This document shows, piece by piece, positions 21,284-60,968 of a stretch of DNA of 64,000 bases (position 1 is the first letter of the stretch; every line of letters starts with the position of its first letter). The translations under genes and the position numbers were made by a program. Origin of the DNA: Acidobacteriota bacterium (GTDB lineage: Bacteria > Acidobacteriota > Terriglobia > Terriglobales > SCQP01). The notes under the pieces are model-generated. The model saw only the letters and a program-made list of their open reading frames with translations, made no database searches and was not told the DNA's origin. The stretch covers positions 1 to 64,000 of the forward strand of contig JAKASR010000014.1 of NCBI GenBank assembly GCA_021818955.1. The letters run 5' to 3'.

Positions 21284-21322
21284 GGCGGCACGGCCGCTTT
21301 TCCGACTCGGCCGTGAATGCTT
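21284..21322 (+). repeat. Minimal remnant of the dispersed palindromic element (R1)
   Basis: The left-end sequence GGCGGCACGGCCGCTTTT joins directly to the right-end sequence CCGACTCGGCCGTGAATGCT (plus T). Everything found between these ends in the long copies is missing. It lies upstream of rpiB in the same orientation. Confidence 0.7.
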
Positions 21323-24809: not shown

Positions 24810-25065
24810 GCGGCCCGGGCGCTTTTACTTTCAGGCGCTGACGCTTTCGCAATGATCCGGCCGAAACCGGACGCATGGCGAATATTCATAGATGCCAAAA
24901 GTTTAAAGTTTATTGTCGTTAACAGGCGCGGGACCTAACAGGAACCCCGCGCTACGGCCTGCGAGCATGGCTAGAGGCAATTTCTTCGAAATTGGGCATA
25001 CTTCAGGCAATTTCTCTGAAATTGCCAATGACAAAAACTACTGCCCAACCCGGCCATTAACACTT
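24810..25065 (+). repeat. Dispersed palindromic element, full-length variant (R2)
   Basis: Starts like the other copies (GCTTTTACTTTCAGGCGCTG) and ends CGGCCATTAACACTT. The first hairpin is decayed (GATCCGG..CCGGA), the second is intact (GCGCGGG/CCCGCGC). The usual third hairpin is replaced by two AT-rich ones: GGCAATTTC-TTC-GAAATTG (24976-24996) and the perfect GGCAATTTC-TCT-GAAATTGCC (25006-25026). It fills most of the gap between the VWFA gene and tRNA-Asp. Confidence 0.8.
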
Positions 25066-25114
25066 CCAGCAGTAAAAACGAGCCTGATTGCTGACTGAAT
25101 ATAATGCAGTTTAA

Positions 25115-25191
<77 letters not shown>

Positions 25192-25254
25192 GCACCACAA
25201 CAACTCAAAGCTACAACAGCCCACGGCACCAGGCATTCGCGCAAAGCCGCCGGA

Positions 25255-25331
25255 TGGTGGGCGATATCCGGCTCGAACGGATGACCTTCTGCTTGTAAGG
25301 CAGACGCTCTAACCAACTGAGCTAATCGCCC
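25255..25331 (-). tRNA. tRNA-Val (TAC)
   Basis: A 77-nt cloverleaf with acceptor GGGCGAT/ATCGCCC, anticodon loop CTTACAA (TAC), discriminator A and an encoded CCA. First gene of the Val-Asp pair; 63 bp separate the two tRNAs. Confidence 0.97.
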
Positions 25332-25444: not shown

Positions 25445-25636
25445 AAGCGGCACGGCCGCTTTTACTTTTAGGCGCTGATGCTTTCGCAAAGGTCCGGCCG
25501 AAACCGGACGCTTTGCGAAAACTCATGGCTGCCGAAAGTTTTTTTGTCGTTAATAGGCGCGGGACGTAACAGGAATCCCGCCCTTCGGCCTGCGATCTCG
25601 GACGAATACTTCTGTCCGACTCGGCCGTTAACGCTT
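25445..25636 (+). repeat. Dispersed palindromic element, reference full copy (R3)
   Basis: 192 bp. It opens with the hairpin AAGCGGC-ACG-GCCGCTT. A 16-bp near-perfect hairpin follows at 25482-25520 (TTTCGCAAAG..GTCCGG / CCGGAC..CTTTGCGAAA, loop CCGAAA). Then come GCGGGA/TCCCGC (25559-25581) and TCGGAC/GTCCGA (25598-25619). The last bases CGGCCGTTAACGCTT are roughly the inverse of the first. It ends 68 bp before the isomerase-like gene. Confidence 0.85.
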
Positions 25637-25704
25637 AGAGATGCGATACAAGCGTAATGCAGACTACATTCCCTACATTTATACCAGCGTATATACTAGC
25701 CATC

Positions 25705-35197: not shown

Positions 35198-35291
35198 GGC
35201 GGCACGGCCGCTTTTACTTTTAGGCGCTGACGCTTTCGCAAAGGTCCGGCCGAAACCGGACGCTTTGCGAAAACTCATGGCGCCTGAAGCG
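35198..35291 (+). repeat. Half copy of the palindromic element (R4)
   Basis: Identical to the left half of the reference copy through the long hairpin (35232-35270), then ends TCATGGCGCCTGAAGCG. That end pairs AGGCGC (35222) with GCGCCT (35280), closing the unit. The right half is missing. It lies in the 314-bp gap upstream of the S10 gene, in the same direction; an adjacent CGGCTT-TTTA-AGCCG hairpin follows. Confidence 0.75.
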
Positions 35292-47690: not shown

Positions 47691-47979
47691 GGCAAGGCCA
47701 TTTTTACTTTCAGGCGATGACACTCAACCCATCAAGCCACCCATTCAACTGCGGTTGAGTGGCTTGACGCGAATTTGGCTTTGCCTTTCCTGGCGCAATT
47801 CCAACGATATTGCCAGCTTGCTTGACACAATGCCTGCGGAATTGCTTAGTCCTTCGAAGCGGATGAGTTGCGAAACCTCATGAAGTTATTTGAGGTCAGT
47901 AGGCGCGGAACCTTAAAATCATCCCGCGCTTCGGCCCGCGAACCAGGAAAAGCAAATTTCCGATTCGGCCGTTGACATT
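47691..47979 (+). repeat. Diverged copy of the palindromic element (R5)
   Basis: Left end GGCCATTTTTACTTTCAGGCG and right end CGCGCTTCGGCCCGCG...GATTCGGCCGTTGACATT match the family, but the central hairpins differ. Inside are two competing 9-bp inverted repeats: CACTCAACC/GGTTGAGTG (47721, 47753) and TCAAGCCAC/GTGGCTTGA (47732, 47759). It occupies nearly the whole gap 47598-47977. Confidence 0.65.
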
Positions 47980-60777: not shown

Positions 60778-60968
60778 AAGCATTAACGACCGAGTCGGAC
60801 AGAAGTATTCGTCCGAAATCGCAGGCCGAAGCGCGGGGTTCCTATTAGGTCCAGCGCCTATTAACGACAATAAACTTTCGGCAGCCATGAGTTTTCGCAA
60901 AGCGTCCGGTTTCGGCCGGACCTTTGCGAAAGCGTCAGCGCCTAAAAGTAAAAGCGGCCGAGCCGCTC
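60778..60968 (-). repeat. Dispersed palindromic element, full copy (R7)
   Basis: 191 bp, nearly identical to R3 but on the minus strand. Read in that direction it opens with AGCGGC-TCG-GCCGCT, holds the same long hairpin (60883-60922 on the plus strand), a decayed second one and TCGGAC/GTCCGA, and ends GTCGTTAATGCTT. Its end is 19 bp from the ABM-like start codon. The gap 60760-61106 holds no gene. Confidence 0.85.

What the first reader, a model, noticed from the sequence alone, without database searches (positions are those of the whole stretch)
25445..25636. Unnamed dispersed palindromic element with conserved ends and three hairpins
Seen directly: a 191-192 bp unit occurs almost unchanged at 25445-25636 (plus) and 60778-60968 (minus). 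Each starts with a 6-7 bp stem with a three-base loop (AAGCGGC-ACG-GCCGCTT in the first), then a 16-bp near-perfect stem with loop CCGAAA, then two more short stems. The last 15 bases (CGGCCGTTAACGCTT) are close to the inverse of the first 14, like terminal inverted repeats. No transposase or long coding frame is inside. I know of no named family that matches; MITE, BIME or a structured RNA are all possible.
Basis: partly seen in the sequence, partly recalled or inferred. Interest (0 to 1): 0.75.

Follow-up and report, generated by a model that had tools for sequence, protein, structure and literature searches.

The report
Unnamed high-copy modular hairpin mobile element
This is one copy of a previously unnamed family of about 300 short, gene-less, hairpin-rich jumping elements in an uncultivated Acidobacteria genome; they slot seamlessly into DNA just before an 'NNGG' motif and mostly point the same way along long stretches of the chromosome, which suggests that they move as single strands during DNA replication by an enzyme not yet found.

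Summary
The 190-bp unit (true ends 25447-25636; copy two 60778-60966, minus) belongs to a family with 298 right ends in the 3.8-Mb genome. Longer copies carry 0-6 and 0-3 extra ~30-bp hairpin units.

Relatives occur in 5 of 14 genomes (three genera) of one Acidobacteria family, and nowhere credible in a 297-genome sample of the phylum. Four hairpins plus a loop-tail pairing are kept between genera, with compensatory changes.

Exact empty sites show seamless insertion: no target duplication, no loss. A G four bases downstream pre-exists (95% of 126 own ends; 21/21 in other genomes; consensus NWGG). Neighbouring copies share orientation (132/157 pairs; maximum of 20,000 shuffles 105), independent of gene direction, and orientation tracks strand composition in 12/12 contigs.

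Best explanation: a non-autonomous element moved as single-stranded DNA at replication forks, IS200/IS605-like in mechanism. No Y1, Y2, TnpB, IscB or IS110 gene was found in this genome, so the enzyme is unknown. It fails defining tests of DDE-MITEs and does not fit classical REPs. Its geometry (free left flank, scaffold, 3' TAM-like NNGG, pseudoknot) resembles OMEGA RNAs, without a nuclease; a minority reading.

The parts
25447..25636 (+). Element copy 1 (short form, 190 bp): H1-H2-H3-H4-tail
25447..25459 (+). Left-end hairpin H1, GCGGC-ACG-GCCGC, kept in all four genomes compared
25482..25520 (+). Long hairpin H2 with loop CCGAAA; loop CCGAA can pair with TTCGG at 25584-25588 (pseudoknot)
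   Evidence: coordinates derived from alignment A2 columns, +/- 1
25557..25583 (+). Hairpin H3 with conserved interior (consensus GCGCGGGACCTAATAGGAACCCCGCGC)
   Evidence: coordinates +/- 1
25598..25619 (+). Right-end hairpin H4, TCGGACG...TGTCCGA; stem changes in a compensatory way between genera
   Evidence: coordinates +/- 1
25620..25636 (+). Right tail CTCGGCCGTTAACGCTT, the element's 3' end
25637..25640 (+). Right-flank target motif AGAG (G at +4), not part of the element
60778..60966 (-). Element copy 2 (short form, 189 bp); its right flank on the minus strand is GATG (G at +4)
24810..25066 (+). Older divergent copy with extra hairpin units (AGGCAATTTCTTCGAAATTG, AGGCAATTTCTCTGAAATTGCC) and a degenerate right end (CCCGGCCATTAACACTT)
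35199..35288 (+). 5' fragment (H1 and H2 only)
47691..47976 (+). Old divergent copy with both ends recognisable
21284..21316 (+). Minimal fusion of left hairpin and right tail (GGCGGCACGGCCGCTTTTCCGACTCGGCCGTGA)

Best explanation
It is a non-autonomous, high-copy mobile element family. Shown: a defined unit with fixed ends, a fold conserved between genera, and optional tandem hairpin modules; seamless insertion into pre-existing NNNG (mostly NWGG) sites without target duplication; presence/absence differences between near-identical sequences and between sister species; strong orientation bias that follows strand composition and not genes. Inferred: the unit is excised and inserted as single-stranded DNA, its end hairpins being recognised by a trans-acting HUH-type enzyme (IS200/IS605- or REP-transposase-like) at replication forks, with the lagging-strand template as the likely substrate. 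The enzyme is lost from this genome, missing from the draft assembly, or of an unrecognised type. Confidence that it is a non-autonomous mobile element is about 0.95; the figure given here is for the single-strand, HUH-type mechanism.
For: 298 right ends in the genome. Exact empty sites, seamless, with the downstream G already in the target. Element absent from orthologous gaps in G001. G at +4 in 95% of 126 own copies and 21/21 in other genomes. Orientation clustering: 132 of 157 neighbours alike, maximum of 20,000 shuffles 105; independent of neighbouring gene direction (42/33/32/31) and tied to third-position T/A skew (p about 1e-6 over windows; sign agrees in 12 of 12 contigs). The same contig-wise clustering in G003 (e.g. 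C8 0 plus/11 minus, C31 10/1, C14 8/1, C34 1/8; counted). Hairpins near both ends with compensatory changes between genera. Precedent: IS200/IS605 elements act on the lagging-strand template through circular single strands, and an Acidobacterium carries ~600 hairpins of a Y1 class (PMC6006769).
Against: No Y1 transposase in the own genome or in G004, and those of G001/G003 have no element ends near them. The target rule is one spaced base pair rather than the contiguous 4-5 nt motif of known Y1 enzymes. Plain GC skew and GC3 residuals do not correlate significantly with orientation; only the T/A residual does. Origin and terminus could not be placed. The windows of the skew test are not fully independent.
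Confidence: 0.6

Rival explanations
1. The element encodes an OMEGA-type (HEARO-like) guide RNA: left flank = guide, the unit = scaffold with pseudoknot, NNGG in the right flank = TAM; a trans-acting RNA-guided nuclease re-cuts empty sites and so spreads or maintains copies.
For: Geometry: free left flank, structured ~190-nt scaffold, 3' NWGG at the insertion point. IsrB TAMs NTG, NTGA and NTGG lie on the same side (PMC9581776). Loop-tail pairing kept in all genera.
Against: No IscB/IsrB (PF14239; NF040563 rings only in a generic ~190-aa HNH protein) and no TnpB in G000, G001, G003, G004 or G008. No HEARO match in Rfam. No G-U over A-C excess for the + strand. The PF14239 search rang in no control genome, so its absence is weak evidence.
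Confidence: 0.13
2. A MITE of a DDE-type insertion sequence.
For: Short, gene-less, many copies, some inverted similarity between the ends.
Against: No target duplication at exact empty sites; no conserved TIR between genera; one-sided target motif; strand bias.
Confidence: 0.05
3. A cis-regulatory or small-RNA gene family spread by duplication and recombination rather than transposition.
For: About 85% of copies lie outside predicted ORFs (25 of 163 inside); strong hairpins.
Against: Seamless insertions at unrelated sites and inside other copies; orientation independent of neighbouring genes; absent from orthologous gaps in the sister species; no G-U bias.
Confidence: 0.05
4. Another mobiliser: IS110-type (bridge RNA), IS91-type Y2, or reverse transcription of a structured RNA.
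For: All can insert without target duplication (general knowledge).
Against: IS110 only in G003; no Y2 in G000, though that family rang in no control; the only RT in G000 is an RT-Cas1 fusion next to a Cas6-like gene, by my reading of the sequence, and G001/G004/G008 have none; no conserved left flank as intron-exon pairing would need.
Confidence: 0.1

Closest known systems
IS200/IS605 family and its non-autonomous derivatives
   Same: Hairpins at the ends, no target duplication, a motif on one side, orientation bias suggesting single-strand transposition at replication forks.
   Different: No Y1 gene in the genome; the conserved target base sits 4 nt away on the 3' side and is degenerate; modular interior with a fold kept across genera.
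REP/BIME elements and REPtrons, including the class 3 TnpA_Y1 hairpins of Solibacter usitatus (about 600 copies; PMC6006769)
   Same: Hundreds of hairpin repeats in an Acidobacteria genome, linked to single-strand DNA enzymes.
   Different: 190-350 nt composite units against 20-40 nt palindromes (PMC3733652); no GTAG/CnGA foot recognised; no Y1 gene beside them.
BOX elements of Streptococcus pneumoniae (PMC3049150)
   Same: Modular: two fixed end modules with a variable number of ~30-45 bp hairpin modules between them; nested insertions.
   Different: BOX has TIRs and target duplications and only a weak strand bias (about 61% leading); unrelated sequence.
OMEGA / HEARO RNAs of IscB and IsrB loci (PMC9581776)
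   Same: Scaffold length, pseudoknot, 3' TAM-like motif next to the insertion point, left flank where the guide would be.
   Different: No nuclease gene found, no Rfam match, no evidence of transcription, no RNA-strand wobble signature.

Membership tests
DDE-type MITE | Terminal inverted repeats | tested here: not met
   Ends GCGGC... and ...GTTAACGCTT share only a palindromic stretch; G003 elements end in CTGGCTCGT.
DDE-type MITE | Target site duplication | tested here: not met
   Exact empty sites are seamless.
IS200/IS605-type element | No target duplication, seamless insertion | tested here: met
IS200/IS605-type element | Subterminal hairpins at both ends | tested here: met
   H1 and H4, kept across genera
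IS200/IS605-type element | Fixed contiguous 4-5 nt target at the left end | tested here: not met
   Left flank shows only A at -2 in 51%; the conserved base is G at +4 on the right
IS200/IS605-type element | Orientation bias relative to replication | tested here: inconclusive
   Very strong orientation bias tracking T/A strand composition, but origin and terminus not located
IS200/IS605-type element | Cognate Y1 (PF01797) transposase in the genome | tested here: not met
   None in G000 or G004; draft genome, 96% complete
REP/BIME | 20-40 nt palindrome with a GTAG-type foot and a flanking tnpA_REP gene | tested here: not met
   Unit of 189-345 nt; no Y1 gene in G000
OMEGA/HEARO RNA | 3' TAM in the right flank with unconstrained left flank | tested here: met
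   NNGG consensus, G at +4 in 95%; the same pattern also fits a transposase target
OMEGA/HEARO RNA | IscB/IsrB/TnpB nuclease in cis or trans | tested here: not met
   (PF14239 control silent, so weak for IscB/IsrB)
OMEGA/HEARO RNA | Match to the Rfam HEARO model | tested here: not met
OMEGA/HEARO RNA | Transcribed guide plus scaffold | not testable with these tools
   no expression data
BOX element | Sequence homology to boxA/boxB/boxC, with TIR and target duplication | tested here: not met
   No target duplication, no TIR; sequence homology itself was not compared

The most novel reading that the evidence does not exclude
Hundreds of stand-alone, gene-less OMEGA-like guide-RNA elements, each using its own left flank as guide with an NNGG TAM, are spread or retained by an unrecognised RNA-guided nuclease acting in trans.
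Probability: 0.12. Interest if true: 0.9.

Novelty: new variant of a known kind. Interest (0 to 1): 0.57.

Why it matters
A family of about 300 similar, strand-oriented, seamlessly inserted elements is a natural record of what looks like single-strand transposition in an uncultivated lineage. Its NNGG rule and covarying fold give precise handles for finding the missing enzyme. It also offers a test case for whether structured non-autonomous elements can exist as stand-alone guide-RNA scaffolds.

Tried and rejected
Rfam at gathering and permissive thresholds: only tRNAs and chance hits. Long LE-RE intervals as autonomous copies: ordinary genes. Y1 loci of G001/G003: no element ends nearby. PF14239, NF040563, PF07282, PF04986, PF01548, PF00078: no plausible partner in the own genome; the ~190-aa HNH protein is generic (that model rings in 9 of 14 controls). 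RNA-strand wobble test: negative. Plain GC skew against orientation: no clear signal (p = 0.07); only the T/A third-position residual gave one. dif sites and DnaA-box clusters: none found. Viral contigs: no match to either end. Exact genome-contig scan for the right end: one Acidobacteria MAG contig, JAJYIU010000011.1. CM hit in G031: ordinary hairpins, judged chance. Two rows of alignment A1 had wrong coordinates and were dropped in A2. Exact junctions at orthologous sites in G001: intergenic DNA too diverged to align base by base.

Full report
What was checked. The unit at 25445-25636 and its second copy at 60778-60968 are real and 93% identical. Aligning copies shows that the true left end is GCGGC at 25447: the two bases before it vary between copies. 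The right end is GTTAACGCTT at 25636. A pattern search of the own genome found 298 right ends with at most three mismatches and one in the reversed control. I read 1.23 Mb of the genome as stretches and found 169 element loci there.

Anatomy. The short form (189-190 bp) has a left hairpin H1 (GCGGC-WCG-GCCGC), a long hairpin H2 with loop CCGAAA, a hairpin H3 with a conserved interior (GGACCTAATAGGAACCCCGC), a conserved strand TTCGGCCTGCGA, a right hairpin H4 and the tail CTCGGCCGTTAACGCTT. Longer forms of about 219, 249-252, 278, 308-316 and 345 bp add tandem ~30-bp hairpin units at two places: GCAATTCCTGCGGAATTGC (0-6 units) after H2 and GGCAATTTCTTCGAAATTGCC (0-3 units) before the tail. Fragments and fusions are common, and several lie in the window. 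Copies of the short form are on average 93% identical, the closest pair 98%.

Conservation. Relatives occur in G001 (same genus; its contig C39 has the length, 106,244 bases, of JAJYIU010000011.1 of Acidobacteria MAG DBS2-1.bin132), G003, G004 and G008, that is 5 of 14 genomes of the family counting the own one, with 129 matches in G003. In a 297-genome sample of the phylum only the own genome and one hit that I judge chance rang; that search used strict filters. On an alignment of 18 copies from four genomes in three genera, 91% of the pair cells of a named structure are standard pairs against 86% in shuffles and 31-46% when slid; 10 pairs have changes on both sides, chiefly in H4 and H2. RNAalifold on its own chose a long-range pairing GGCCGAA:TTCGGCC that is kept in all four genomes with one compensatory change; together with H2 this is a pseudoknot. 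Within the own genome, substitutions in stems show no G-T over A-C excess (50 against 75). So the data do not say that a + strand RNA is the functional molecule; folded single-stranded DNA is equally possible.

Insertion. Joining the two flanks of each copy and looking for the joined sequence gave exact empty sites. One is a near-identical second version of the locus at a contig end (70 of 70 bases; GCGCGGT^TTCGACACC); others are elements that jumped into other elements (GAATTGC^TTGGTATC; TCGTTAA^TAGGCGCG). There is no target duplication and no lost base. At intergenic gaps shared with the sister species the element is absent, for example 277 against 88 bases for a 189-base element. A second site in the contig-end pair has 19 unrelated bases in the version without the element, so not every site is clean. 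The right flank has G at +4 in 95% of 126 copies, G at +3 in 48%, A or T at +2 in 67%, and little G at +1; the left flank has only A at -2 in 51%. All 21 elements with both ends located in G001, G003 and G004 have G at +4; in G004 the last base of the tail is variable. The G belongs to the target before insertion, since the empty sites have it.

Orientation. Neighbouring elements share orientation in 132 of 157 pairs; the highest of 20,000 shuffles was 105. Contig C6 has 26 plus and none minus, C22 none plus and 15 minus. The bias does not follow genes: elements fall evenly in the four classes of neighbouring gene directions (42, 33, 32, 31). It follows strand composition: the third-position T/A skew, corrected for gene direction, differs between windows of the two orientations (p about 1e-6), and its sign is opposite to the net orientation in 12 of 12 contigs. 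GC3 skew alone is not significant. G003 shows the same clustering (counted). I infer a replication-strand bias; I could not place the origin or terminus.

Mechanism. Seamless insertion, hairpin ends, a one-sided motif and strand bias are together what single-strand transposition by HUH enzymes of the IS200/IS605 kind predicts (general knowledge; PMC6006769 for the lagging-strand template). No such gene was found: Y1 is absent from G000 and G004, and those in G001 and G003 have no element ends nearby. Y2, TnpB, IscB, IS110 and RT searches gave no partner in the own genome. Genomes with REPs but without the enzyme are suspected (PMC6006769), and short-read drafts lose repeated insertion sequences, so absence is not decisive. 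The spaced, degenerate target rule is unlike known Y1 targets.

The RNA-guided reading. A free left flank, a scaffold with pseudoknot and a 3' NWGG motif at the insertion point have the geometry of IsrB/IscB loci; reported IsrB TAMs include NTG, NTGA and NTGG (PMC9581776). But no nuclease, no HEARO match and no RNA-strand signature were found. It may work like that in outline; it is not filed as a member.

Verdict. An unnamed, recently mobile, modular non-autonomous element family, found so far in one Acidobacteria family; a new variant of a known kind (single-strand, hairpin-ended mobile elements) with an unidentified enzyme and an unusual spaced target rule.

Noticed in passing
L198:220-2316 (own genome contig C28, about 104.8 kb): A 698-aa reverse transcriptase-Cas1 fusion with a Cas6-like ORF upstream, i.e. 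an RT-containing CRISPR adaptation locus, by reading of the translation.
   Followed up: no
G000 contig C43:1-594 and contig C22:854-1: Two near-identical contig ends (97-100%) that differ by element insertions: probably strain variation or an assembly-graph branch, showing very recent mobility.
   Followed up: partly
L199 (G003 contig C39, about 91 kb): A 701-aa stand-alone reverse transcriptase, possibly of a defence type.
   Followed up: no
L054 (G003 contig C40 end): An IS200-type Y1 transposase fragment (128 aa) beside an AACCAGGGACTTCATCCCTGGCTA hairpin, probably a separate REP-like system.
   Followed up: partly
own genome, e.g. contig C41:8557: Elements lie inside about 25 of 163 predicted ORFs; the left end can be read through as peptide (AARPLLLLGADAFAKVRPKPDAG), so some may have become parts of coding sequences.
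   Followed up: no
window 25115-25331: tRNA-Asp and tRNA-Val genes (minus strand) lie between two element copies.
   Followed up: no
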